64,000 nucleotides of DNA, taken from NCBI GenBank assembly GCA_031292625.1, contig JARLGU010000048.1, positions 1 through 64,000 of the forward strand, written 5' to 3'. The notes under the pieces were generated by a model. It made no database searches, had not been told where the DNA came from, and saw nothing but the letters and a program-made list of their open reading frames with translations. The DNA comes from Capsulimonadaceae bacterium (lineage in GTDB: Bacteria > Armatimonadota > Armatimonadia > Armatimonadales > Capsulimonadaceae). Position 1 is the first letter of the stretch. Every line of letters starts with the position of its first letter. Below, piece by piece: positions 45,160 through 60,156 of this stretch. The translations under genes and the position numbers were made by a program.

Positions 45160-46857
45160 ATGACAAAATTAACGCAGGTTGTCGAACTCGACGCGAGCGC
45201 CGCATCGCGCGCGGATGCCACGGAGCCCGTCCGGTCCGCTCTCCGATCACTACGCGGCGCAGGCCCAAAGAAACTTGTTTTTCCCAAAGGCCGCTACCAC
45301 TTCTGGTCCGATCGGGCAACCGAAGAGTACCTCTTCGTATCGAACAACGACCCAAGCCTCAAAGCTCTAGCATTTCCTCTGATTGGGTTCGATGACCTGG
45401 AAATCGACGGCCAAGGATCCGAGTTTATCTTTCATGGCTTCATTACGCCCTTCGCAATTTCGGCCAGCCACGATATCCGACTCCGCAACTTCAGCATCGA
45501 CTGGGAGAGAACGTTCCACAACGAAGCGCTGATAATGGACTCGAAACCCGCGCCGAAAGACGGACTAGCCTCAATCGACCTGGGGATCTCCAAGCAGTAC
45601 CCCTACCGGGTCGAGCACGAGCAGCTTCGCTTTACCGGCTACCACGACCATGAGCCGCTTGCGCCGGGACACGCGCTGTCGTTCGATCCCGTGCGCCGCG
45701 AGCCTTCTTGGCAAGCTCACGACGACTGGGCCGTTAAACAGTGGCACCACGCGGTCGAAATTGACCCCGGCATTGTGCGATTCACCGCGAAGTTCTCACA
45801 GCCCCCAAAAGCCGGCAATGTCGCCACGTTCAGCAACGCCGGACGATATTGCCCCGCCATCGTGCTTACCGGAAGCCAGGATATCGAGCTATCGGACATC
45901 GCAATCCATCATTGCGGCGGCATGGGCGTTATCGCCCAACTTACGCGCAACATACGCTTGACTCGCGTCAAAGTGACCCCGCCTCCCGGCAGCGATCGGG
46001 TGATCTCGGCGACCGCGGACGCGACGCACGTCGTCAACTGCGCCGGGCAGATCGAGTTCGACGAGTGCCGCTTCGAGAACCAGCTGGACGACCCCGGCAA
46101 CTTCCACGGAATCTACGCACGCGTCTCCCGCGTCACGTCGCCGTCGACCGTCGAGGTGGAACTGGTTCACGGCCAGCAGGTCGGCATCGAGATTACACAC
46201 CCAGGCGACGAAATCGAATTTGTGGGCAATAAGAACCTTCTGACATATGCGACCGCCAAAGTCGCCGCGTTCACGCGGATCAACAAGCGCTTCTTCGAAG
46301 TCGAGATCGAGGGGAATCTGCCTCCCGAGACCGCCAAAGGAGATGTCATTGCGTCGCTAACATGGGTCAGCAACGTCACGGTGCGCAACAGCCGGGTCGG
46401 CAACAACCGCGCGCGCGGCTTTCTTATCTCGACCGCCGGAAAGGTTCTCATCGAGAACAACGTCTTCCGCTCGCCGGGCGCCGCGATCCTGATCGCGGGC
46501 GATGCCAACTACTGGTTCGAGTCGGGCAAGGTTCGCGACATCACGGTGCGCGGGAACACGTTCGACAATTGCCTCTACAGCGTTTGGGGCCGCGCGGTGA
46601 TCGACATCGTTCCGGAGATCGAGCCAAAGAACCGCGAAGGCGCGCTCTACCACCAAAATATCAGGATCGAAAACAACAAGTTCATCCTGGCGGACGCCCG
46701 CGTCATGAACGCCCATTGCGTCGACGGCCTCGTGTTCAAGAACAATACGATTGAATGGGGATCGGACTACCCGCTAGGTCCCGGCAAGGAAGCGTTCCAC
46801 GTCGAAGCCTGCGCAAACGTCGAAATCGAGGGTGATACGCTTCCGCCGAGGGATTGA
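45160..46857 (+). CDS. GH110-like alpha-1,3-galactosidase (right-handed beta-helix)
   Basis: 565 aa. The opening FPKGRYHFWSDRATEEYLFVSNNDP and LEIDGQGSEFIFHGFITPF match the start of family GH110 enzymes, which release alpha-1,3-linked galactose. The rest shows repeated beta-helix turns (VTVRNSRVGNNRARGFLIST, ITVRGNTFDNCLYSV). No signal peptide is present, whereas characterised GH110 enzymes are usually exported; this would put it in the cytosol. It may instead be an uncharacterised relative. It stands alone on the strand, converging on the 1,124-residue gene. Confidence 0.78.
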   Translation: MTKLTQVVELDASAASRADATEPVRSALRSLRGAGPKKLVFPKGRYHFWSDRATEEYLFVSNNDPSLKALAFPLIGFDDLEIDGQGSEFIFHGFITPFAISASHDIRLRNFSIDWERTFHNEALIMDSKPAPKDGLASIDLGISKQYPYRVEHEQLRFTGYHDHEPLAPGHALSFDPVRREPSWQAHDDWAVKQWHHAVEIDPGIVRFTAKFSQPPKAGNVATFSNAGRYCPAIVLTGSQDIELSDIAIHHCGGMGVIAQLTRNIRLTRVKVTPPPGSDRVISATADATHVVNCAGQIEFDECRFENQLDDPGNFHGIYARVSRVTSPSTVEVELVHGQQVGIEITHPGDEIEFVGNKNLLTYATAKVAAFTRINKRFFEVEIEGNLPPETAKGDVIASLTWVSNVTVRNSRVGNNRARGFLISTAGKVLIENNVFRSPGAAILIAGDANYWFESGKVRDITVRGNTFDNCLYSVWGRAVIDIVPEIEPKNREGALYHQNIRIENNKFILADARVMNAHCVDGLVFKNNTIEWGSDYPLGPGKEAFHVEACANVEIEGDTLPPRD

Positions 46858-47053: not shown

Positions 47054-50000
47054 CTATCGCGCCGCGCTCACTCTCCAGACGGCCGTCTCGCCCCGGTGGA
47101 GCGTAAACGGAATGCCGGTCGCGCTCAACACGTCCGCAGTGGACGAAAACGGCGCGGTCTTGGGGTCGGTCAGGCACTCGACTTTATACGAGCCGGGCGC
47201 AAGGACGTTCAGCGCTATCACGCCGGACTGCGTACCGAGAGCGCGAATCGCGGCGTCGGATGAAGCGTCGCCCATGTAGCCCTGCCCAAGATAGCGGTGC
47301 GCTACGAGATAATGCGCCGACTGCGTAGACAGCCACTCGGTTTTAATCTCCGGCTGCGACGGCGTCACCGGAACACGGCCGCCGAGCTGAGCGTAGAGCG
47401 CGCCGAGGAACGGGGCGGATTTCGGATAGTTCAGCCTGCCCGGAAACACGATCACCGTGCCAGCGCCAACGTGAACCTGCCAGCAGACGACGCGGCCGTT
47501 CGTGTCCTTGAGCAGCGGCGTTCCTCCCGGAAGGCTTTGATCGAAACGGGGTTGGCCATCGAACACAATCGGGCCGTCCTTGGGCCAAAAGCCAGCTCCG
47601 TCGATGACCGGAGCCTGGTATTTGGCGGCATTCGCGTCGAACGAGGCAGTGGTCGCGTCCGGCGCTGGCAGGCCAAGGGCGCGCCAAAGAGCAAAGGGTT
47701 TCGCGGCGGGATCGGGGATCTGGCTGCCGCTGGCGATGTCCATAACCAGGACGCCGCCGCGTTTGACATAGTCCACGAGACGCTGGATCGTCGCCGCTTC
47801 CACGATCCGCCCGTATTGTCCGAGCAGCACCGCGAGTCGCTTGCCTGGCAGTGCAATCGGGAGATCCTCTTCATACACCCACTGTGGCCGCAGGTTTTCC
47901 TCATTCGCGATTTTGCGGCCCTGCTCCCATTCAGGGAACCACGCGACATCGCCAAAGATCGTTCGCGCGTCATAGAATAGCAGATCCGGGCTCGCGACGA
48001 TCGCCACGTCGTCGATAGCCGGTTTGGAATCCTTAAGCTCCGCAAGAATCGCGGTCCACTTCCGCCAGTAAGCCATTTGAGCAGCGCCGGAAGCGCCGGT
48101 ATAAAGCTTGCTGCCCGCGCGGCAGAAGTTGTTGATCGATGTCCCCAGGCCGCCCATGCTCAGCATGTTGAAGATATCGCTGTCGACGCGGATCTCGCTT
48201 CCGAACTCGCACGATACGCTTTCGCTTCGATCGCTCATCCCATGGAGGTATTCGCGAGAGAAACGGGGGATCGGCTGGTGCTCGCCCTCCGCGCCGCCGT
48301 TAGCGAGGTAGACGCCCTGCATTTTGCACAAATCGAGCGGCATCCAGACGCCGCCCATCGCGTAGAGCGAGATGGCGCGCCGCTGATCCATGGCGCGGAC
48401 GGTGTTTGCAAGGAAGGTAATGTAGTCCGTCGAAAACCACCGTTTGAAGTCCATGAAATCCCGCCATCGCGGGCTAAAATCAGGATCCGGCGTAAAGTTG
48501 GGCGACGGCAGCGGGACATCCGAAAACACCGTATACGACGTCCCGTAGCGCGCGTTTAGCGACGCCAGCGTCTGCCCCTTCGTGTCGCGAAGGTAGCGCT
48601 GAAACGCCGCGCGCGCTGCCGGAGAGTAATCGACGGTGACTCCCAGGTACGGTGCGTCGGGCAAGAGCCAGTCGCATCCGACGCCCAGGAACTCGTAGCC
48701 AATCAGGTTCTTGTCGGCAAGGTAGCGTCCTTGCAGTCCGTGGATGAGCGCCGCGATCCCAGCGCGCAGCTTCGTGTCCGCCGCGGTTGGCAGCACGCCT
48801 TTTGCATCCCACACCTGCGTATCGCCGCTCTGGTCCTCCATCAGGTCGACGTCGAGCCAGTCCGGCTGGTCGGTAAACGACCAGTTGATCTGCAACAGAT
48901 ACGGCATGCCGATCTTGTCGAGATACGCGATGCGCTGATCCAAAACGGAGAAGTCCATGACGCCGGGCAGCGGGTTGAGACGACGCCACGTCAGGCGCAG
49001 AATGTAGCAGTTGTAACCGGCGTCGCGCAGGTTGTCGACGTGGTCCTCGAAATCCTTTTCGCCGCAGTCGTAAATCTCGTGATCGAAATTCCCTACCGTC
49101 ACCAGGTTGCCGTATTTCTTGACCACGTCGTCGCGGCTCAGCGCTGCCGCGCTGATTTGCAGCGGATTGACCGGCATGTCTTGCGCGATCCCAAAGGTCG
49201 TTTCCGCCCGCTCGATGGAACCCGCGCCGGACGAAATCTGCACGCCAAATGTCGCGACTGGACTTTGCACGCCATCCCATCCGGCGAGCGTAACGGGTTT
49301 ATCCACGTACGACTGAGCCCCAAAATCCAATGGCGCAACGAGCCCCGCCTGCGGAGTGCTGCCATCACGCCGCCAATAGGTCCACGTGTACGGACCCGGC
49401 CCATCAGGCTTCCAGAAGCGAACGGTGACGACCTTGGGCTCCTTCGACAAATACACGCGGCTGCCTTTGAGCGAATTAAAGCCGATCAGGGTTCCAAGCG
49501 GCCGCGTGTTCGCGGGAAGCGGCGGGGCAATCTGAGCGCCGCGCAGAATATGAAGACGGTACGCCAAATCGCGGCGCGCCCCGATATCGCCTGCATCGGC
49601 GTCGCGATCGATAACGCTGACCTTGAGCGAATAGCTGCCGGGCGTAAGAACCGGGATGCGGACACGGTCCGCGGGCTGCGCGGCGGGATGGCCGGGATCG
49701 TAATCGAGGTTCTGCTCGCCCTGCCAGAGCAGCCGGGTTTCCGAAAGATCGTAGGCCCGCCACAAGACGCGAAAGTGCCCGGAATCGCGGCAGAGATCGC
49801 TCGCCATTAGAAACGGCAGTTCGGCCCCAGGGACGATGCTCTTTAGCGTCCGGTCGTTTAAACTCCATTGCGCGAATACGTCGCTCTGTTTGGACAGGTC
49901 GAACGCGATTCCATCAACCGTAACCGTATCGGATGTTAAAGCGCCGGTCTTGATCTCCAGTCCCTTCAAGGCAAGCGGCGGCTCGGGTATGCCATCGTTG

Positions 50001-50428
50001 TCCCCGCCAGAGTGCGACGCAATATCCCGGTTGTTGATGGGCCGCCCGCCGTAGGGATCAATCAGAAGCGTCGTGCAAAAACGATCGCCGTTCCCCTGCG
50101 AGCGGGTCGCATAGACGAATTCCTCGCCATGCGCATCGACGACAATCGGCCGGACGGCGACATCCCTCCCCTGGACCCAAAACGCGATGTGCTGAACGCC
50201 CGGCGGAAGCGGGACGGGCTGCTTGAGCAGGCCCCGGAAAGTCGTCCCGCTCGTAAAATTGTCGTATGTCCACGTCGTCGATCCAGGGGTGGGCGTGCTC
50301 ATGACGACTCCCGTCACCTCCGGCAGGCGCCACGCGGCATCGGCAGGAAGCAGTTGGTAGAGCGGCGACGCAATTGCGGACGCAGTAGTAGCAATGATGG
50401 CGATAAGGATGTGAATTGTGTAGCGCAT
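47054..50428 (-). CDS. Giant secreted GH42-like protein, acid/base residue not conserved
   Basis: About 1,124 aa with a signal peptide (MRYTIHILIAIIATTASAIAS). About 400 residues of beta-rich modules precede a GH42-like barrel with RLTWRRLNPLPGVMDFSVLDQRI, then YSPAARAAFQRYLRDTKGQTLASLNARYGTSY, and a C-terminal beta-galactosidase trimerisation-like domain (IQRLVDYVKRGGVLVMDI). At the place where GH42 enzymes have the acid/base in IDNE, the sequence reads IGYEFLGV, so the glutamate appears replaced by valine. It may be a catalytically changed or carbohydrate-binding relative. The gap of 490 bp upstream suggests its own promoter. Confidence 0.75.
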   Translation of the reverse strand: MRYTIHILIAIIATTASAIASPLYQLLPADAAWRLPEVTGVVMSTPTPGSTTWTYDNFTSGTTFRGLLKQPVPLPPGVQHIAFWVQGRDVAVRPIVVDAHGEEFVYATRSQGNGDRFCTTLLIDPYGGRPINNRDIASHSGGDNDGIPEPPLALKGLEIKTGALTSDTVTVDGIAFDLSKQSDVFAQWSLNDRTLKSIVPGAELPFLMASDLCRDSGHFRVLWRAYDLSETRLLWQGEQNLDYDPGHPAAQPADRVRIPVLTPGSYSLKVSVIDRDADAGDIGARRDLAYRLHILRGAQIAPPLPANTRPLGTLIGFNSLKGSRVYLSKEPKVVTVRFWKPDGPGPYTWTYWRRDGSTPQAGLVAPLDFGAQSYVDKPVTLAGWDGVQSPVATFGVQISSGAGSIERAETTFGIAQDMPVNPLQISAAALSRDDVVKKYGNLVTVGNFDHEIYDCGEKDFEDHVDNLRDAGYNCYILRLTWRRLNPLPGVMDFSVLDQRIAYLDKIGMPYLLQINWSFTDQPDWLDVDLMEDQSGDTQVWDAKGVLPTAADTKLRAGIAALIHGLQGRYLADKNLIGYEFLGVGCDWLLPDAPYLGVTVDYSPAARAAFQRYLRDTKGQTLASLNARYGTSYTVFSDVPLPSPNFTPDPDFSPRWRDFMDFKRWFSTDYITFLANTVRAMDQRRAISLYAMGGVWMPLDLCKMQGVYLANGGAEGEHQPIPRFSREYLHGMSDRSESVSCEFGSEIRVDSDIFNMLSMGGLGTSINNFCRAGSKLYTGASGAAQMAYWRKWTAILAELKDSKPAIDDVAIVASPDLLFYDARTIFGDVAWFPEWEQGRKIANEENLRPQWVYEEDLPIALPGKRLAVLLGQYGRIVEAATIQRLVDYVKRGGVLVMDIASGSQIPDPAAKPFALWRALGLPAPDATTASFDANAAKYQAPVIDGAGFWPKDGPIVFDGQPRFDQSLPGGTPLLKDTNGRVVCWQVHVGAGTVIVFPGRLNYPKSAPFLGALYAQLGGRVPVTPSQPEIKTEWLSTQSAHYLVAHRYLGQGYMGDASSDAAIRALGTQSGVIALNVLAPGSYKVECLTDPKTAPFSSTADVLSATGIPFTLHRGETAVWRVSAAR

Positions 50429-50920
50429 GGCGATGAGTTTATTGAACAAACGAAAGGTGCGTCATCTCGACCATACGCTCCAATATCATGAGACCGGTCG
50501 AAATGACAATGTTGGTAATTCCAGCTAGTATTCTATAAACCAAGACTTGCTCTAATTGCGTTCAGTTGTAAAGACCCTCACCCTAACCTCTCCCATCGGA
50601 ATGGGCGAGGGAATTCCGGCTCCCTCGCCCGGCTTTGCGGGAGTGGGCTGGGGTGAGGGTTCACACAGCTAATATCGAAAGGTCTTGTAGGACGGCTCCC
50701 CGGCCGCCGTGGCCGTTTTTGAAAAGGGACGGCACGGCGATTCTCCTGCTTCACGATGTGCGCCGGGATCGGACGATGGCAGCAAAAGGCCGTACGCGTG
50801 TTGACGAGGCAACGTAAATCACCGCCGTAAACGAGGCGCGGGCAAAAAAGTGCCCCGGCGGCACGAGCCGTCCTGAATCTTACTTGCAATACGCCAGTTG
50901 ATTACACACACTCTGAGCCC
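50429..50920. other. Intergenic region containing a palindromic repeat-like element
   Basis: No gene. The main feature is a REP-like inverted repeat at 50574-50660, listed separately. The remaining sequence shows no clear promoter. Confidence 0.5.
50574..50660. repeat. REP-like palindromic intergenic element
   Basis: Outer arms ACCCTCACCC and GGGTGAGGGT, with inner arms of the CTCCC/GGGAG type and a GAATTC centre. The style is that of dispersed extragenic palindromes; similar short arms are seen near 32250. Confidence 0.6.
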
Positions 50921-51724
50921 CTACTTCCAAGCGATCCGCAATTCGAGATCGCGCTCGAACGGCGCGGCGGGATCGAATTCGTAGGTGCTGCGGATCTGAC
51001 AAAACTGCGCCTTTTGGCTATCGATTCCCGAGTAGACGCGCCAGCCACGGACGTTGGGCGGCGTGCCGGGAGAGACAGGCGTTTCGGTCATCGTGTATAC
51101 GATCTTAGCGGGAGATCCCGCAAGATCCTTGAGCGCAAAGGTTGCCGTCGTGATATTGTAGCGCAGGTCGTCGCCATGTCCATTGTTGTGCGCGGCAGGC
51201 CACTCCGCCGTCAAGGGCGAGACCTCGCTCAGATCGTAACCGATGCCATCCGTGGAGAGCGTCGCGCCCAGGTAGACAGCGCCGGGCAAGTAGCCGCTGT
51301 AGTCGAGCAAGTTGCCTGGCGAACTCGCCGCCGTATTCACCTTAACAACGATTTTGAGTTCGCGCGGGCTAATTTCAGTGATCTGTTTCGTCACCTGAAC
51401 GGGTTGCCCGGCTGGATCGGAGAACGTGATGATCTTCTTCTCGCCCTTCGTTGTATCGACGCGGGAGGGGTGCGCGAAGTTGGTCGCCCAGGGTTCCAGG
51501 CTCCAGCCATAGACGCCGTGCCAGGGCTTGGTGTTCACCAGCATGAGCGCGTTCGCGTCGGTAAATACGATCGCGTCTCCCACCTTAACCGTCACCCCGC
51601 CTTTCTCGTCATAACCCACCTGCCAGCCGCCGCCGGCCGCGCGGGAAGGCGACGAGGTCGCAACGATGACGCTTACGAGGGCAAGCGCGAGGGAAATCGC
51701 TTTACAGTTCAACTTGAGTTTCAT
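50921..51724 (-). CDS. Secreted protein of unknown function
   Basis: 267 aa with a signal peptide (LNCKAISLALALVSVIVATSSPSRA). The mature part is beta-rich (GWQVGYDEKGGVTVKVGDAIVF, ELKIVVKVN), with no family I recognise; it could be a sugar-binding or lectin-like domain. It lies 36 bp after the long GH42-like gene on the same strand and so probably belongs to that operon. Proposed as an accessory of the flanking large proteins, by position only. Confidence 0.65.
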   Translation of the reverse strand: MKLKLNCKAISLALALVSVIVATSSPSRAAGGGWQVGYDEKGGVTVKVGDAIVFTDANALMLVNTKPWHGVYGWSLEPWATNFAHPSRVDTTKGEKKIITFSDPAGQPVQVTKQITEISPRELKIVVKVNTAASSPGNLLDYSGYLPGAVYLGATLSTDGIGYDLSEVSPLTAEWPAAHNNGHGDDLRYNITTATFALKDLAGSPAKIVYTMTETPVSPGTPPNVRGWRVYSGIDSQKAQFCQIRSTYEFDPAAPFERDLELRIAWK

Positions 51725-51760
51725 TATTGGTTCTCCATCTTACGCGTGAAATTGATTCTG

Positions 51761-54700
51761 CTATCTTTTCTCCGCCGACGTGATTACCGGCGTGGCCTCC
51801 AGCAGGAAGCCTTGACCGGCCTTCAGCGACAGATCGACGCCGCGGGTTCGCAACTCGGAGCCGCTTATCGCGCCCAGGTCGGTCGCGTTGACGAGGTCGC
51901 GCACGTGGTACGTGACGCTGCCTTTCGCTGGAACCAAGCAGCGGCGAGCTTCGGACACTTCCGTCCCGGGAACGGCGATGCCGCCCGCCACCTTCGCGAT
52001 CTCGTCGTGTCCGATAAAGCGACGTCCGACAATGAAGATCGATCCGTCCCTGGAAAACGCGCTTGTGATCAGCGTCGGGTCGCCTCCAACCGTGCCAGTC
52101 CACGGCGCGCGCCGTCCCCATGCATCCACAGCCGAAGCCAATCCCTTGCACGATAGCCAGTCTACGACGCCGCAGAAGCTCAGCACTTCCCCTTTGCCAT
52201 ACGTTATCGTAAACGCCGCAGGAGAACCGTCCGGATAGCGCGCCACAACATGTGCGGCCTGCGGCAACGTGCCCACGCGATAGGTGCGCAAGTACGGGCG
52301 AGGTATGTTCTGGATCCAGGGCGTCGGCTGCGTCTCGACGGGCGGGGACCACGGGCGCACTCGAAAGGCGACCGGGACGTTACGGAACATAGCTGCCGAA
52401 GCACTGGCGGCAACGGAGTCGGGCGACGCGGACGGAGTGGCGCGCGGCGAAACCGGCGGCAACCCCAGACGGCGGCCTAGCGCGTTAGGCGCGCCAACCC
52501 CATCGAGCCAGTAGCCGCTGGTCGGTTCGATCACAAGGCGTCCCCCGTTATGAACATACGTCAACAGGCCATCGATGACCTTTGCGGTCAGCACGTCGGC
52601 GCAATACGGAACGTAAACGTACGGCCGGGCAGCCAACGACGGTCCCGTCACGTCGTCCGCTGCAATCCAGTCGGACTTGAGCTTTTCCGCCCCGGCCTGG
52701 AAGCGGTAAGGTTTAATCGGGTCCTCAACGCGCCCGGCGAACGTATGCTGGTAGATGCCGAACAGCGACTCCATCGAATAGAGGTACGCCGCGTTGGACG
52801 CGGACGCCCCTTCGCCGAGCGGCTTCGCGCCATACAGGCGGTCCATAACCGAAAACCATTCCACGAGGCGCGACTCGGCTTCGGATTCGGTGGCGCTCAA
52901 CGTGGAGAGGCGGCTCTGCGGGAAGACGTAGTTATTGAACGAGTTCCAGCCCGGCCGAGCGGAAAGCAGATTGGTTAACCCGACGTCGACCAGCGGGGCC
53001 GTACGCGCAATCTTGCCGATCGGCTCATACCGGATCGGATACGGCTCGAGCGCCGGGGGGAACATCATCTCCATCGACCCATCCGCCACAAAAGCGTCTT
53101 GGTGCACATAATTCGCGCTGACATACGGCAGGGCATCGTCAGCGTAGAAGCCAACCTGACACGCCGGGTCGCCCGAGTGCAGCCCGGAAAGCATCGCGTC
53201 CTTGCTGGCCCACATCGCGCTGAGCTTCGCGTCCATCCAGTCGCGCCAGATTGCGGACGTCGCGGGCTTGAGCCGGCCGTCCGCGTCCGTCTCGAAATGC
53301 GGCAAGGGCGGCGCAAGGGCGTCCCACGTTGCGTAATGCACTCCGTAGGCCTTCGCAACGGCTGCCAGGCTACCGTACTTGGCTTTGACGTGCTCGACAA
53401 AATAACGCGTCATGGAAGGCGAATAGTCGACGTACTGGTTCAGATAGGGTTGATCCAGCCAACCGTGGTCGAACATGACGTTCGACAACGTGTAGCCGAT
53501 CACGCACGCCCGGTTGCGGAAATGGGAGGCGAGGGCATGAGCGTACTCGTGCAGGCCCGCACGCAGTGCATCCGACGCAGGAGATGCTACGAGTGACGAG
53601 CTTGCGTTCCAGAGCCCGTGCGCCGTCCCCTCCCGATCCTGCTGGTATTCACGCGGGATCCACGATGGAATGCAGCTATAGATTGGGTGGATACGAAAAA
53701 CGACTTTCAAGCCGCGCTTTTCGGCTTCATCCGCCAGCTTATCGAGCGGCTGCCAGATGTAGACGCCGGGCAAGGGCTCGACATCGAACCAGGGGGCGGC
53801 AAACTCGACGGTCGTGTACTTGTCCTGCTTCGCGTCGTCCATCCAGGCCTCGAACTTCGCCAGGTAATCCGCCTGCTGGCTCACCACCGGGGTCGAGCCC
53901 TCGTTCCAATCGCACTTCGTCCGGCTGATGCGGTGATCGCTCGCGGCGCTCTTCTCGGCTATCAGAGTCTTGCCGTGCGCGCTTGCAGGCTCGGCAGCCG
54001 CAACTCCGAGAACCCTGCGCCCAACGGCGACAACATTACCGCCCTCAAGCAGCCGCGATGTCAGCCAAAAAGCCGGACCGCTCGACCGATACTTAGCCAG
54101 ATCCAACGTTGACGGAGACGTCGCCGGCGCAAGACCGCTGTCAATCGGCGTCTGATCGGCGGCCTGCAAAGTCCATTCGATGGCCTGGGACGATTTCGCG
54201 CCGGGGGCGGCCACGTGGACGAGCGCGGGCTTGCCCGGCCGAAAGACATTCGCGCCAGATGACGACGTGAACACGAGGCTGCCCGGCAACGTCGTTGCCG
54301 GCAGATGCGCGACATCGCTGCGCACGATGACATAGCACGCGTAAAGCTGTCGCGGGGCCGCCTCGGCATCGCTCCAAACGTTTACGCGCAGGTGGTACGT
54401 GCCTGCGGGCAGAATTGGAAACTCGATGGAGCCCGTTCGATCGGACGCGATCGTCCACGTGCCTCGGCCCGTTTCGACGACCTGCCAACCGTCGCCGCGC
54501 AAAATCTCCCAGTCGTAGCGATGCGCTCCGGGCGCAAGGTTCAGATCGGACGCACGCAGAAATGGACGCGGCGCGTTGGGACCAATGCCAAAGCGAGACG
54601 CGGCGACGCCGTTCATACGGTCGGATCCCCATACCACCGGCAATCCGCCAGCCGCTTTATCGCGAACCGCCCAGTCCGGCTCGCTCGTGAACAGCCAGTA

Positions 54701-55381
54701 CGGCTCCGCAAACCGGGAGGTCCCAATCCACCGGACGTCCCGGAGAGAGACTGTATACGATTTCTCGGACGACACGATCAAACGAAATCCCACGAGCGCC
54801 AGCGGCGCGCAGGGTGAATCGAACTCATCGATTTTCCCATCCGCGCGGTTGAGCATCCACGGCGTCACGCGGCCAAGCTCGTTTGCGGTGTAAGGATACG
54901 TTTCGACTTGCTCGTAGCCTGCGGTCGCCGGCAAGACGCCCATTCCTTGCTGTTTGGTATTCGCCGCCCAGACAGTCCCATGGGCATCCTTAAATAGTAC
55001 GCGCAAAGCGGGATAGGGATACGGATTTTGAGCCGGACTGCAAATTGCGGACAGGCCAAAACGATCCCCGCCCGCGCTCAGCGGCGCTGGTTGAGGAAGG
55101 TAGTAATCCAGAACCGCCGCGCTATGCTGATTTTCATCCACATACAATCCGAGGCTCTCGACACTGCCCGTCAGATGCACGACGCCGCCGTCGACGGACA
55201 GCGTGCCAGCCGCCGTGCCAACGGTGGCCGCCGCCGGGCGCTCAGGGCAGTCGGGAATGCGGAGCAATTGATCGCTCATGGCGGCAGGCGCGGCCGACGC
55301 AACCATGACCGCGGCGCACGTAAGACCTGCGGCTTTGACAACCTGACGGGATAAAGACCCGAGTGACGTAGCAATGTGCAT
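51761..55381 (-). CDS. Giant secreted GH42-like protein, acid/base residue not conserved (second copy)
   Basis: About 1,206 aa with a signal peptide near residues 15-36. It has the same architecture as the protein at 47054-50428: long beta-rich N-terminus, GH42-like barrel (EFAAPWFDVEPLPGVYIWQPLDKLADEAEKRGLKVVFRI) and C-terminal trimerisation-like domain (IDGLLTYVHNGGRLVIEP). Where GH42 enzymes read IGWQIDNE it reads IGYTLSNV, so the acid/base glutamate is again valine. The start at 55381 has AAAGGT at good spacing. It lies 100 bp after the GH43/GH130-like gene. Confidence 0.75.
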   Translation of the reverse strand: MHIATSLGSLSRQVVKAAGLTCAAVMVASAAPAAMSDQLLRIPDCPERPAAATVGTAAGTLSVDGGVVHLTGSVESLGLYVDENQHSAAVLDYYLPQPAPLSAGGDRFGLSAICSPAQNPYPYPALRVLFKDAHGTVWAANTKQQGMGVLPATAGYEQVETYPYTANELGRVTPWMLNRADGKIDEFDSPCAPLALVGFRLIVSSEKSYTVSLRDVRWIGTSRFAEPYWLFTSEPDWAVRDKAAGGLPVVWGSDRMNGVAASRFGIGPNAPRPFLRASDLNLAPGAHRYDWEILRGDGWQVVETGRGTWTIASDRTGSIEFPILPAGTYHLRVNVWSDAEAAPRQLYACYVIVRSDVAHLPATTLPGSLVFTSSSGANVFRPGKPALVHVAAPGAKSSQAIEWTLQAADQTPIDSGLAPATSPSTLDLAKYRSSGPAFWLTSRLLEGGNVVAVGRRVLGVAAAEPASAHGKTLIAEKSAASDHRISRTKCDWNEGSTPVVSQQADYLAKFEAWMDDAKQDKYTTVEFAAPWFDVEPLPGVYIWQPLDKLADEAEKRGLKVVFRIHPIYSCIPSWIPREYQQDREGTAHGLWNASSSLVASPASDALRAGLHEYAHALASHFRNRACVIGYTLSNVMFDHGWLDQPYLNQYVDYSPSMTRYFVEHVKAKYGSLAAVAKAYGVHYATWDALAPPLPHFETDADGRLKPATSAIWRDWMDAKLSAMWASKDAMLSGLHSGDPACQVGFYADDALPYVSANYVHQDAFVADGSMEMMFPPALEPYPIRYEPIGKIARTAPLVDVGLTNLLSARPGWNSFNNYVFPQSRLSTLSATESEAESRLVEWFSVMDRLYGAKPLGEGASASNAAYLYSMESLFGIYQHTFAGRVEDPIKPYRFQAGAEKLKSDWIAADDVTGPSLAARPYVYVPYCADVLTAKVIDGLLTYVHNGGRLVIEPTSGYWLDGVGAPNALGRRLGLPPVSPRATPSASPDSVAASASAAMFRNVPVAFRVRPWSPPVETQPTPWIQNIPRPYLRTYRVGTLPQAAHVVARYPDGSPAAFTITYGKGEVLSFCGVVDWLSCKGLASAVDAWGRRAPWTGTVGGDPTLITSAFSRDGSIFIVGRRFIGHDEIAKVAGGIAVPGTEVSEARRCLVPAKGSVTYHVRDLVNATDLGAISGSELRTRGVDLSLKAGQGFLLEATPVITSAEKR

Positions 55382-55480
55382 GAGATACCTTTCGCCCGCC
55401 TTCAAAGGAATGCGCCTGCCAAGGCGCAACGCGGGGTTTCCATCGATAATCTTTGCCGCGGAGGTTGCTCTCGTCGCGCG

Positions 55481-56413
55481 TTACAACCAGAGATCCTCGC
55501 CCAAGCGGGTCGCCAGGCCAATCTGCTCGACATGGCCCTGGCGGCCGTTGTACCAAAGCTTCCACTGACTGCCGTCCCAAAGGGCAGTCGGCTTGTAAAC
55601 GGCTTCGCCGTCCCAAGCTCCCGGCGTCGGCGAGATAACTGGATTCTGCGGCAACCTCTCCCAGCCCATGATGCCGTCGCGCGATCGCGCAATGCCGATC
55701 GCGGCCTGATGGACGTTCCGGAAGCCGATGTAAAACATATAGTGCCAGCCGCCGTGCCTGACAATCTGGCATGCGGTAACCTTCTGCTGCTCCCACGCGA
55801 GAGCGCGGTCCGACGAAAAGACCGGTTCCCCGTGTTTAGTCCATTCGATGCCGTCCGGGCTCGTCGCGTAGCCGATCGCATCCGGCTCGTACTGTTCCCC
55901 GCCGCTGTACCACATCTGAAAGAGGCGCAGATCCCCGTTCCATTCAACGTGCGGGCACATCACGGCCGAAAGCTCCCAAGGCTGATCGGGGACCATGACG
56001 GGACGCGCAAGGACGCGGCGGAAGACGCGGCCATCCGTGCTGGTTGCATAACCGATCGCGGAACGCTCTCCCTCGCCGAACACCTGGCCGGTGTACCACA
56101 TGTGGTACACGCCGTCTTTGAAGACCACGATTTGGCGGTTGACCTCTTGTTCCCACTCTGCGCCATCGTCTGGAGCGAGACAGATCACGGGCTTTCCCCA
56201 CGTTGCGCCGTCCACGCTTTCGACGACGGCGATGCTGTGCTTCGTACGCCAGGAGAAATAGAGACGATACAGCCCGTCCGAGACCAGGATCGCCGGGTCG
56301 AAGCAGACGCCAAGCGCCCCTCCGAGAATTGGCGGCTGGCCGGACTTCACCCATCCGGCCGACGTAGTTTGTAGGCTAGAAACGGGAAACTGATTGTCTG
56401 AAAGAGAACTCAT
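55481..56413 (-). CDS. Beta-propeller glycosidase or phosphorylase (GH43/GH130-like)
   Basis: 310 aa with no signal peptide, so cytosolic. Five propeller blades can be traced by repeating blocks such as FDPAILVSDGLYRLYFSWR, RQIVVFKDGVYHMWYTGQV, AIGYATSPDGIEWTKHG and YMFYIGFRNVHQAAIGIARSRDG. The catalytic acids cannot be fixed by eye; Asp in FDPAIL is a candidate general base of GH43 type, while mannoside phosphorylases of GH130 share the fold. It lies between the GH71-like and the giant GH42-like genes. Confidence 0.75.
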   Translation of the reverse strand: MSSLSDNQFPVSSLQTTSAGWVKSGQPPILGGALGVCFDPAILVSDGLYRLYFSWRTKHSIAVVESVDGATWGKPVICLAPDDGAEWEQEVNRQIVVFKDGVYHMWYTGQVFGEGERSAIGYATSTDGRVFRRVLARPVMVPDQPWELSAVMCPHVEWNGDLRLFQMWYSGGEQYEPDAIGYATSPDGIEWTKHGEPVFSSDRALAWEQQKVTACQIVRHGGWHYMFYIGFRNVHQAAIGIARSRDGIMGWERLPQNPVISPTPGAWDGEAVYKPTALWDGSQWKLWYNGRQGHVEQIGLATRLGEDLWL

Positions 56414-56549
56414 AGATTTGCTCCAAAGAGAGGATTTCTCTTATGGTAGCTTTGAGAGAGACCACGCACAAGGCGACGAACCAACAGATTACAGGGATGA
56501 TTTATCTTCCGCCGCCAGGAACGAGGCTGCGCATTCAGAGTGAGCCTGC

Positions 56550-57893
56550 CTACTTGCCAAACGCGATCCCGGTCGTCGGAAAGAAATTATATTCGAATGG
56601 CTGATCCGTCACCGGTTCGCCATCCGTTTCGGTGACGAGCTTGCCGTTTCGATAGAGAGCGAAGTGCTGCTCTCCCACGTGAAATGGAATCGCGAGCGAC
56701 GAATAGCCCGCCGGCATCGGCGACCGGGTTTCGACGCCGCCGCTGACGACGCGAATTTCCGCGGGGGCGGTAAGCAACGTTGTGACGGTGATCTCGTCCT
56801 GGACGCCCGCACGCTGATCGGTTACCGGCGCTGACATGCGCGCGCTGGGCGCATGCCCCCCTGGATACTCCAGCGTCGCAATGGCGTTCTTGGGGTGCAC
56901 CCGGTAGACATAAACCAGGCGGTCGCGTTTGATCTTCGGCTTATGGCCGGTCTTGTACCACTCGATGAAATACCTTGAAAGCTCCAAGTAGCCCGCATGC
57001 GGGTGGCGAACCGGAAAACGAAGCCCTCCCTCGTATTTGCCGGGGTCGTCGACCGGCGTAATGTATGTCTCATTGAAATCGTTCCAGGTCACGATCTCGA
57101 CGAAATCCGGCTGCGTCGCGATAATCGACATCCACTGGCGCTCGACGCCAAATCCCCCGTGCGTCTCGTAGTAGCGCCGCCCTGGTTGCCCGGCCCCCCA
57201 GTAAAACGGCGTATAGCTGGCCATCACCAGTTTGTGCGCTTCGCGAGCCGCTTTGACGTAGCTTGCATTACATGCCGTGAGCTCGGAATCGGAGCCGGCC
57301 GCGCCGAAGAAGAAGTATCCGTCCGCTATATTGCTCCACCTTGCAAAGTGAGCCTTCACTGCCTCGTAAGAGGGCAACTCGGTCACGGGATCCGGATAGA
57401 AGAACGGCACGAAGCAGAGCTTATAGCCGTCCGCCTTCAGCGGATCGAGAATGGGCGGCCAGTCCACCCCGCGATCGCCGCCGAAGGTCGATACGACCGG
57501 ACGGCCTTGATAACGGTAGTAGGCGGGATCGTTCACATAAGCGCGCAGGATTTCCGGGATGTAGACCGGCTTGAGAGTCGCCAAATCGAGCGAAAAGATG
57601 AACTTAAACCCCGTGTTCAACTCGTGCGCCGCGTCGAAGAGCATCCTTGTGCGCGTAAAGTAATGCGGCTCATTGGTCCACGCCCCCTCGTTGAGCGCAA
57701 AGCCGTCGATTCCGGCCGCCTGGGCCTCCAAAATATCGCGCTTATAGCCGTCGATCGATTCGCCATAGGTCGCGAAACAAACCATGTAATGGGCAAACAC
57801 GGCGTGTTTGCCTGCTTCCGATGCGCCTGCCGGGGAAAGCGTGCACAAGGACAAACACGCCAGTGCGAAGAGTTCGAGAACACAATGCTTCAT
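56550..57893 (-). CDS. Secreted GH71-like (alpha-1,3-glucanase family) protein
   Basis: 447 aa with a signal peptide (about residues 1-24, MKHCVLELFALACLSLCTLSPAGAS). The GH71 opening VFAHYMVCFATYGESIDGYKRDILEAQAAGIDGFALNEGAWT is clear, and a barrel of about 320 residues follows, with FVEIVTWNDFNETYIT near its end. The family hydrolyses alpha-1,3-glucan (mutan); the related GH99 endo-mannosidases are the alternative. It follows the pseudopilin gene by 48 bp. About 100 residues of beta structure follow the barrel. Confidence 0.85.
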   Translation of the reverse strand: MKHCVLELFALACLSLCTLSPAGASEAGKHAVFAHYMVCFATYGESIDGYKRDILEAQAAGIDGFALNEGAWTNEPHYFTRTRMLFDAAHELNTGFKFIFSLDLATLKPVYIPEILRAYVNDPAYYRYQGRPVVSTFGGDRGVDWPPILDPLKADGYKLCFVPFFYPDPVTELPSYEAVKAHFARWSNIADGYFFFGAAGSDSELTACNASYVKAAREAHKLVMASYTPFYWGAGQPGRRYYETHGGFGVERQWMSIIATQPDFVEIVTWNDFNETYITPVDDPGKYEGGLRFPVRHPHAGYLELSRYFIEWYKTGHKPKIKRDRLVYVYRVHPKNAIATLEYPGGHAPSARMSAPVTDQRAGVQDEITVTTLLTAPAEIRVVSGGVETRSPMPAGYSSLAIPFHVGEQHFALYRNGKLVTETDGEPVTDQPFEYNFFPTTGIAFGK

Positions 57894-57941
57894 GAGACTT
57901 CCTGACTGTCAAAGCGAATCGTACAAAACGGCAACCCGCGC

Positions 57942-58847
57942 CTAAAGGATGCCAAACGTCGCGACCAATGTCGTGTCGGCGCACTGGGTACCGGCGTACT
58001 CGTACCAATAGCCGCCGCTCGGACAAAACGTCGAACTCAGTGAATTTCCGTCACCGCCGGTCACCTGCGTCGGCAGCAGCCATTTGGCGTGTCCGTCGGC
58101 CATCACATAATTCCCGCCGTTTTGATGCCGGCCGGTTAAGCTCAGTTGATTGTTATTGGGAATGGGATCCGCCCCGCCCATCTGATCGTTCCTGAGCTGC
58201 CCCATCGCGTAAAACTGGTAGTTGGCAAACATTGCGTTGCCCTGGTCGATCCCGTTGCCAGCAGCCGATCCGGCATCGGCATCGAACGGCGTCTGCTGGT
58301 GGTTCATGCTCTTTCCGGGAAGGACGGACTCCGTTACTTCGAAGATCGCAACGGTCTTTGCGGGCGCCGTCAACATGGACGTCTGCGCAAGGTGGATCGT
58401 CTCGTATTTGTTGTTATAGGTATCGAGGGCAGTGTAGACTGGCCCTGATTGCAAAGTGTAGCCGGCAAGAACCTCATTGTAGCCGTAAGACCACCCGGTC
58501 GTAATGCTGCCAGTTGGATCGGATGGACAGATCATTATGTTGGCGCTCTTGAAGTACGGATAGAGCTGTCCAGCCCATCCCTTGCCAGTCCCCCCGTAGA
58601 GAAGCAAGGTGCCGCACGGATAGATCTCATCGTAATCCTGGACGTACTGCATCATCGCGATGCCGAGCTGCTTTTCGTTCGATAGGCACGCGGTCATACG
58701 CGCCTTTTCCCGCGCGGTCGCAAAGACAGGGAAAAGTATTGCAGCTAAAATCGCAATAATTGCTATAACAACGAGGAGTTCTATAAGCGTAAAAGCTCTG
58801 CGCTCGCGATAGCGCTCAACGCCGAGCAAACTAACGAAACGTATCAT
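57942..58847 (-). CDS. DUF1559 prepilin-type pseudopilin (module 3)
   Basis: 301 aa. The prepilin site is [10 protein letters not shown], with Ala before the cleaved Phe as in module 1; the helix, [15 protein letters not shown] motif and the tail H-x9-DG ([12 protein letters not shown]) are all present. ATG 58847 is chosen because GGAGGT precedes it; longer frames add an unrelated N-terminus. It follows the GntR/LacI gene by 61 bp. As in the other modules the first hydrophobic stretch uses AT-rich codons. Confidence 0.92.
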
Positions 58848-58908
58848 TTCTCGATACCTCCATCGTAGCGCCGTCCCGGCGCATTCCATACCGCAGTCAG
58901 TACAGGCC

Positions 58909-60156
58909 TTACTCTCCCAAAAAGCTTCCATTCGTGGACGTTCTGGCAATCAGATGCGAACTCAGGCAAACGCGCTGGCACGTCGGGTCGCCCTCCAATG
59001 CCCTCACGGTCAGTCGCGACGCACACTGGCCCATCTCATCCAGAGGCGGGCGCATGCTCGATATGCCATACGAGCGCGCGACGACGCTGTCATCGAAGCC
59101 GACGAGCAGGAAATCGGCGCCAGGAACGAGACCGAGTTGCGCGGCCGCCTGGCAAACGCCGGCCGCCATCTGGTCGTTCGTCGCCACGATGCCCTGCGGC
59201 ACGCGGGCGGCGAACGTCTCCAGGGCCGCGTTTTTCGCGGACTCAACATGCAGCAGGTCGTTCTCGTCGTAGCGATCCTCAAAGCGGACGATAAGCTGGT
59301 CATCGCCGATGCGCGCTTTGCGGAGAGCATCTTGAATACCGGCAAGCCGCTCATCGGCCCATTGGTAGTGCTCGTAGGCCAGGTACATAAGAGTCGTGCA
59401 CCCCTTGGCGATCAGATGCGCGGCCGCTTGAAACCCGGCATCGACGCTGTCATAGTAGACGTTCCAGATGGGCCGGTTAACTCCGATCGGCGAAACATAA
59501 ATGAGCGGAATGGCCGCATCGCCAACCATTGCCTCGAACTCGTCGACTCGCGGCCAGCGGTCATTATACGTCATCACGACGAGCGCTTCGCACCCCTGCT
59601 CAATCAACCTCGCGACGGTAACATCCACAGGAATCACGCCTTGGCCCGGCGTCGTGCGGTTAATGTAGATGACGCTTCCTCCCGCATTGGAAAGCGATTT
59701 CTCGACACTGCGCAGGATCGCCTCGCTGTCGCGACTGACCGGATCGTCCGTGCTGATGATGCCGATCGTTCGCCGGCGGGTCAGCTTCTCGCCCCAGTGC
59801 GAGCGGTCGTCTCGCTCTAGAACCGCTCCCGCTACGTGATTATTAGCCGTAAGGGGACGGTCTTGTTCGGAATGAGCGCCGCGAGCGACGAAAGTCCCGC
59901 GAGTGCCCTGGGTTTCCAGCGTGCCGTCGTCAACCAACGCCTTGATCGCCCGCTCAACCGTATGGATGTGGACGTTGTACTCTTCGGACAAGCGCATGCG
60001 GCCGTCGATCATCGCGCCGACCTTCCACTCGCCCGTTGAGATGCGGTTGCGCAGATCGTCTTCGATGCGGCGATAAAGCGGGACGGACTCTCCCTCAAGC
60101 TGCCGAGGCGCCCTTTCTGCACGTTCTTTGCGCGATAACCGTTGCTGGGTACTCAA
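58909..60156 (-). CDS. GntR/LacI chimeric regulator (AraR-like), module 3
   Basis: 415 aa. The winged helix is GntR type ([25 protein letters not shown]...[16 protein letters not shown]), and a LacI-like sensor domain follows (about 110-405). It is a paralogue of the regulator at 26699-27949. The start is TTG with GGAG five bases upstream. The promoter -10 box lies inside a TACTA/TAGTA palindrome, suggesting autoregulation. It probably controls the downstream pseudopilin and glycosidases. Confidence 0.88.

What the first reader, a model, noticed from the sequence alone, without database searches (positions are those of the whole stretch)
47054..55381. Two giant secreted GH42-like proteins in which the acid/base glutamate seems replaced by valine
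Both proteins have GH42-like barrels and trimerisation-like C-termini, but the strand that should read IGWxxDNE reads IGYEFLGV and IGYTLSNV. The same substitution in two paralogues is unlikely to be chance decay. They may be binding proteins, use another catalytic residue, or be a new family.
Basis: partly seen in the sequence, partly recalled or inferred. Interest (0 to 1): 0.58.

Follow-up and report, generated by a model that had tools for sequence, protein, structure and literature searches.

The report
Sugar-cutting enzymes with shifted catalytic acid
Two large secreted bacterial proteins that look like sugar-cutting enzymes lack the usual acid-providing amino acid at its standard place, but they and almost all of their close relatives carry an acidic amino acid about three places further on, so they are probably working enzymes whose catalytic acid has moved and not broken ones.

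Summary
Confirmed: A (47054-50428, -) and B (51761-55381, -) are intact secreted GH42-like proteins, and the residue at the GH42 acid/base column is Val583 (A) and Val635 (B), codon GTC in both. The dead-enzyme or binder reading is not favoured. Three residues downstream both carry Asp (A Asp586, B Asp638). Among 32 distinct homologous segments scoring at least 110 bits, 30 lack Glu at the canonical position and all 30 have Asp/Glu two to four residues later (22 exactly three later). The canonical position itself is free (P, G, Q, Y, L, V, A, R, I), so valine in both is no signal. The beta7 nucleophile Glu is kept in all 28 aligned sequences. B has full-length orthologues (about 33% identity) in two genomes of another phylum, with V/L/A at the old site and an invariant FDH motif at the new one; one also shares B's GH71/pilin/GntR-regulator neighbourhood. 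A tree needs at least two switches between the layouts. Best reading: active clan GH-A-type glycosidases with a displaced acid, a new variant of a known kind. Not shown: geometry, activity, substrate. Models were too weak in beta6-beta8 to measure distances, and profile alignments disagree on register.

The parts
47054..50428 (-). protein A, 1124 aa, secreted GH42-like; barrel about aa 450-800
51761..55381 (-). protein B, 1206 aa, secreted GH42-like; barrel about aa 500-860
48671..48703 (-). A beta4 segment IGYEFLGVGCD (aa 576-586)
48680..48682 (-). A Val583 (GTC), column of the canonical GH42 acid/base Glu
48671..48673 (-). A Asp586, proposed displaced acid/base (+8)
48221..48223 (-). A Glu736, beta7 nucleophile by alignment (Glu741 is a nearby alternative)
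48287..48289 (-). A Glu714, carboxylate at the end of beta6, alternative acid
53468..53500 (-). B beta4 segment IGYTLSNVMFD (aa 628-638)
53477..53479 (-). B Val635 (GTC), column of the canonical acid/base Glu; V/L/A in the three orthologues
53468..53470 (-). B Asp638 of the FDH motif, invariant in the three orthologues; proposed displaced acid/base
53024..53026 (-). B Glu786 (RYEP), beta7 nucleophile by alignment
53069..53071 (-). B Glu771 (GSME), carboxylate at the end of beta6, alternative acid
50921..51724 (-). secreted 267-aa protein between B and A, no Pfam family
55481..56413 (-). five-blade-type protein (PF00251 34.8 bits, GH130 27.2 bits), same strand upstream of B
56550..57893 (-). 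GH71 protein (235 bits); a GH71 gene also lies beside a B orthologue (L211)
57942..58871 (-). DUF1559 pseudopilin, also beside a B orthologue
58909..60156 (-). GntR / sugar-binding regulator, also beside a B orthologue

Best explanation
A and B are secreted glycosidases of the GH42-like branch of clan GH-A that still cut by the two-carboxylate mechanism, but the acid/base carboxylate does not sit at the end of beta4 (position +5). It sits in a longer beta4-alpha4 loop, about three residues later: Asp586 in A and Asp638 in B. The nucleophile stays on beta7 (Glu736 in A, Glu786 in B). Val583 and Val635 only fill a position released from selection. Shown by sequence: loss of Glu at +5, the coupled D/E at +7 to +9, the kept beta7 Glu, cross-phylum conservation of the B-type site. 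Inferred: that the +8 carboxylate reaches the substrate and acts as acid/base, that both proteins are active, and that the mechanism is retaining. Substrate unknown; B's neighbours (GH71, GH130-like, secreted proteins, sugar-responsive regulator) suggest a polysaccharide pathway.
For:: of 32 distinct beta4 segments scoring >=110 bits against profile A4, 30 lack Glu at +5 and 30 of 30 have D/E at +7..+9 (2 at +7, 22 at +8, 6 at +9); leaving out the 7 seed sequences, 23 of 23. At >=60 bits, 52 of 58 without Glu at +5 have it against 13 of 40 with Glu (Fisher p 4e-9; sequences not independent); column 250 (A Asp586) is D/E in 19 of 21 chosen displaced-type rows and the other two have Asp one residue later; column 434 (A Glu736) is Glu in 28 of 28. 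B orthologues L165 and L166, 33.6% and 32.8% over 1197 and 1171 aa, V/L/A at +5, FDH invariant, R.EP on beta7 invariant; starred branches force at least 2 changes of the displaced label; the QPGGE clade is separate from the A/B group and lies beside Glu(+5) proteins (95/90); in 5 of 5 printed alignments the +8 acid stands opposite the catalytic Glu of GH42 structures (E160 of 8ibr by my count; E160A is in the title of 8ibs). GntR, DUF1559, GH71 beside the B orthologue in L211 as in the window.
Against: Register is ambiguous: profiles A5 and A7 align +5, not +8, with the GH42 Glu in 4 of 4 printed alignments each, and A6 in 2 of 3. No geometry: pLDDT about 49 around A Asp586 and under 50 for model residues 271-359 of A and 258-328 of B; no coordinates were available. 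The beta6 Glu (A Glu714, B Glu771) is Glu in 12 of 21 displaced-type rows and could be the acid in that branch. A second acid in DxP[YW] (A Asp591) is kept in 15 of 21. Asp as acid/base would be unusual for clan GH-A (general knowledge, recalled). A has no clear orthologue; its best-scoring foreign hits are 22-27% identical. L212, around the other B orthologue, does not share the GH71/GntR neighbours in the stretch read.
Confidence: 0.62

Rival explanations
1. The acid/base role is taken by the carboxylate at the end of beta6 (A Glu714, B Glu771), that is, from another strand; the beta4 +8 acid is structural.
For: Glu at that column in A, B, L165, L166, L059, L060, L143, L194, L083, L172, L170, L190 (12 of 21); GSME invariant in the B orthologues.
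Against: The QPGGE clade has His, Gln or Ala there and L175 has Pro, yet they keep Glu at +8 or Asp at +9, so beta6 cannot serve all displaced-type relatives; in L176 it is Gln.
Confidence: 0.15
2. A and B are non-catalytic carbohydrate-binding or scaffold proteins.
For: The canonical acid/base Glu is absent; both carry large extra N-terminal regions.
Against: beta7 Glu in 28 of 28 rows and a D/E at +7..+9 in 30 of 30 rows; B's active-site motifs FDH, GSME, R.EP are invariant across phyla at 40% barrel identity.
Confidence: 0.13
3. Retaining enzymes that need no built-in acid (substrate-assisted, or activated leaving groups), the valine being the functional replacement.
For: Val at +5 in both A and B.
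Against: +5 is not conserved (9 residue types in 30; V/L/A among B orthologues), and a nearby acid is always kept.
Confidence: 0.05

Closest known systems
GH42 beta-galactosidases (PDB 4uni/4uoq, 8ibr, 1kwg, 5xb7)
   Same: Pfam GH42 matched in all 21 A5 members; fold matches Z about 20 for A and 17 for B; beta7 Glu.
   Different: No Glu at the N-E end of beta4; displaced D/E; longer beta4-alpha4 loop; proteins of about 1100-1200 aa with N-terminal extensions.
GH167 (BovGH167, PDB 6ptm; 9whd)
   Same: A divergent 'GH42-like' family split off from GH42; domains A, B, C plus an own N-terminal domain (passages of PMC6923384); profile match 4.9e-15.
   Different: GH167 keeps the acid/base Glu in place (E295 overlaps it in BovGH167); no close similarity to A or B.
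GH148 (EngU)
   Same: Weak GH42 similarity, clan GH-A, changes right after beta4 (a CBM4 inserted there; passages of PMC5725463).
   Different: Its acid/base E239 stands in INNEN, the canonical layout.
beta-1,2-glucosyltransferase of Ignavibacterium album (7vkw series)
   Same: Among the best fold matches of A (7vl3, Z 20.6, 544 residues).
   Different: 13% identity; acid position not compared here.

Membership tests
GH42 | GH42 barrel profile over the curated cut-off | tested here: met
   A 41.3 and B 42.2 bits, cut-off 21
GH42 | Acid/base Glu at the end of beta4 (N-E) | tested here: not met
   Val583 and Val635 at that column in A5 and A7 alignments; A4 alignments put the +8 Asp there instead, and even then it is not Glu in A or B
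GH42 | Nucleophile Glu on beta7 | tested here: met
   Glu736 / Glu786 by alignment, 28 of 28 rows
GH42 | Trimerisation domain B (PF08532) | tested here: inconclusive
   E 0.24 and 0.20, under cut-off; ThuA-like fold match in B's model
[quoted passage not shown]
   -
GH167 | Acid/base Glu overlapping that of GH42 (E295 in BovGH167) | tested here: inconclusive
   By inference the same column as GH42, where A and B have Val; but the alignments to 6ptm printed here begin after beta4
Clan GH-A | (beta/alpha)8 barrel with carboxylates at the ends of beta4 and beta7 | tested here: inconclusive
   beta7 Glu kept; the beta4 carboxylate lies about three residues later; geometry not measured
GH14 beta-amylase | Sequence profile over the cut-off | tested here: inconclusive
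   PF01373 matched 7 of 21 A5 members at E up to 0.1, best 2e-4; 3voc is among A's best folds, Z 20.7

The most novel reading that the evidence does not exclude
The displaced carboxylate is a recurrent, functional re-siting of the acid in a large unclassified GH42-like superfamily. It arose at least twice, with Asp tolerated, and in the A/B branch (which also keeps a third carboxylate on beta6) the changed reach could turn the barrel into an inverting or otherwise non-classical enzyme, something not expected of clan GH-A.
Probability: 0.15. Interest if true: 0.8.

Novelty: new variant of a known kind. Interest (0 to 1): 0.5.

Why it matters
Annotation pipelines call such proteins GH42 beta-galactosidases by barrel score, while a motif check would call them dead. 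If the displaced acid is real, both calls are wrong for a widespread group (found here in the own genome and around Planctomycetota, Verrucomicrobia and Hydrogenedentota records), the group deserves its own GH families, and it offers a natural series (Glu at +5; Glu at +5 plus acid at +9; only +8) for testing how a catalytic residue migrates.

Tried and rejected
Valine as a shared functional substitution: rejected, +5 is variable. Single-base error: rejected, GTC is two changes from GAA/GAG and the B orthologues have L and A. Orthologues of A or B in the own phylum: none at E <= 1e-9 among 291 genomes apart from A/B themselves, except two partial matches for A. GH14 as a structural precedent for a later acid on beta4: dropped; I could not obtain a beta-amylase sequence (no match; one search gave only remote GH14-like proteins) and by hand, from a recalled motif, the register can be read as +5 or +7. 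Fold searches list no decisive nearest family (rows within 1 Z are tied). Structure geometry: not measurable, both prediction jobs used, low confidence in beta6-beta8. Spurious TAL-effector matches of L145 come from a short repeat-like stretch and were ignored. Paper searches for GH42 with Armatimonadetes, GH42 with loop insertion/general acid, 'migration of catalytic residues', 'divergent GH42', clan GH-A with aspartate, GH42 with GH167, GH42 with pseudoenzyme (search listings seen) listed no paper whose title or abstract start describes this displacement; that is absence from these searches of one open-access library only. Of papers I read only found passages of PMC5725463, PMC6923384 and PMC8449922.

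The row set of 21 displaced-type sequences was picked by me from the hits; the unpicked count is. A first try at that count used a wrong column and is void; one search failed. The tree used 39 rows that I chose out of the hits. Row L113 was labelled Glu(+5) by me, its register is unsure and its branch long. L147 (Glu at +5) is not among the 32 segments; it scored about 110 bits. The organism's phylum was not identified; Armatimonadota is a guess.

Full report
What is there. A (47054-50428, minus; 1124 aa) and B (51761-55381, minus; 1206 aa) are intact ORFs with signal-peptide-like starts. Both pass Pfam's GH42 cut-off. On the same strand upstream of B lie a GntR/sugar-binding regulator, a DUF1559 pseudopilin, a GH71 protein and a GH130/GH32-like protein; between B and A lies a 267-aa secreted protein without a family; beyond A, on the plus strand, a GLAA-B-type beta-helix protein. 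The genome has 35 GH42-profile matches, many with a normal N-E motif.

The observation. Counting the Tyr of IGY as 0, canonical GH42s have Glu at +5. A has Val583 and B has Val635 there, both GTC.

What the relatives say. A and B are each other's best hit in 61 related genomes (28% identity); no full-length orthologue appears among 291 genomes of the phylum. The one scan of genome contigs with an alignment of A, B and two paralogues gave 31 loci, and profile searches of 291 own-phylum genomes and of the phyla of three of those loci (372, 367 and 68 genomes) gave more. In most of the close ones the +5 Glu is gone and an Asp or Glu stands at +8.

Count. Over all distinct beta4 segments with a residue at the anchor column: at >=110 bits, 32 segments, 30 without Glu at +5, and 30 of 30 have D/E at +7..+9 (2, 22 and 6). 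The two with Glu at +5 (L146, L193) also have D/E at +9. Leaving out the 7 seeds of the profile, 23 of 23. At >=60 bits (98 segments), 52 of 58 without Glu against 13 of 40 with Glu (Fisher 4e-9, sequences related). In a chosen set of 21 displaced-type and 7 Glu(+5) rows, the beta7 Glu is present in 28 of 28.

Orthologues of B. L165 (33.6% over 1197 aa) and L166 (32.8% over 1171 aa) come from the search around the genome of L083, whose record is titled Phycisphaerae. Their barrels are 40% identical to B; +5 is V/L/A while FDH (Asp638), GSME (Glu771) and R.EP (Glu786) are invariant. Around L165 lie a GntR-type regulator, a DUF1559/N-methyl pseudopilin, a GH71 and a beta-helix protein, as in the window. 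Around L166 the stretch read has a trehalase-like GH, pseudopilin-type and GDSL proteins but no GH71 or GntR.

History. In a 39-row tree the displaced (+8) layout is clustered (5 changes against 13.3 in shuffles) and starred branches force at least 2 changes. The QPGGE clade (L144, L145 and others) falls in a group with Glu(+5) proteins L146, L147, L193 (95/90), apart from the A/B/L059/L060 group. Several long branches make details unsure.

Register and structure. HMM alignments to GH42 structures do not agree: profile A4 places the +8 acid opposite the catalytic Glu in 5 of 5 printed, A5 and A7 place +5 there in 4 of 4 each, A6 is split, 2 for +5 and 1 for +8. I take this to mean that +5 is the homologous column and +8 a separate residue. 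The models (13-row alignments; mean pLDDT 61 and 59) show beta4 ending at A Leu581 with Asp586 just after it, and match GH42-type, GH14 and glucosyltransferase folds (Z about 20 for A, 17 for B), but beta6-beta8 are below 50 and distances could not be taken.

Mechanism. Best supported: two-carboxylate glycosidases whose acid sits in the longer loop after beta4, nucleophile Glu736/Glu786. The sequence facts are shown; the catalytic role of Asp586/Asp638, activity and retention are inferred. The main rival is the beta6 Glu (A Glu714, B Glu771), Glu in 12 of 21 displaced-type rows but His/Gln/Ala in the QPGGE clade.

Known families. By a tested defining feature A and B are not GH42 members, although they probably work most like them. 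GH167 and GH148 are precedents for 'GH42-like' proteins that became own families, but both keep the acid in place (passages of PMC6923384 and PMC5725463). The paper searches made listed nothing on this displacement.

Verdict. A real and informative feature whose likely cause is not a dead site but a moved acid. New variant of a known kind; interest 0.5.

Noticed in passing
L211 (G645:C1:1962000-1981900) and window 51761-60156: A gene set of GntR-type regulator, DUF1559 pseudopilin, GH71 and the B-type GH42-like protein occurs in both genomes, across phyla.
   Followed up: partly
window 50921-51724 (-): Secreted 267-aa protein between B and A with no Pfam or NCBIfam family; a terminator-like site with T6 lies between it and A (50864-50850).
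   Followed up: no
L146, L147, L193: Relatives with Glu at +5 and also D/E at +9 (EHPGD/EHSGE), possibly homologous to the DxP[YW] acid of A and B; a candidate intermediate state.
   Followed up: partly
L060 (G000:C3:39000-47207): Neighbouring GH42-like proteins in the same genome, one with YQHNE (+8) and one with a GQNTGEW layout.
   Followed up: no
L151, L161, L164, L133/L216: GH14/GH35-like proteins with a GNFGE-type motif after beta4 in Hydrogenedentota-side genomes and the own phylum; they look like another uncharacterised branch.
   Followed up: no
window 45160-46857 (+): Beta-helix protein with both GLAA-B barrel domains (PF23763, PF23764), convergent with A.
   Followed up: no
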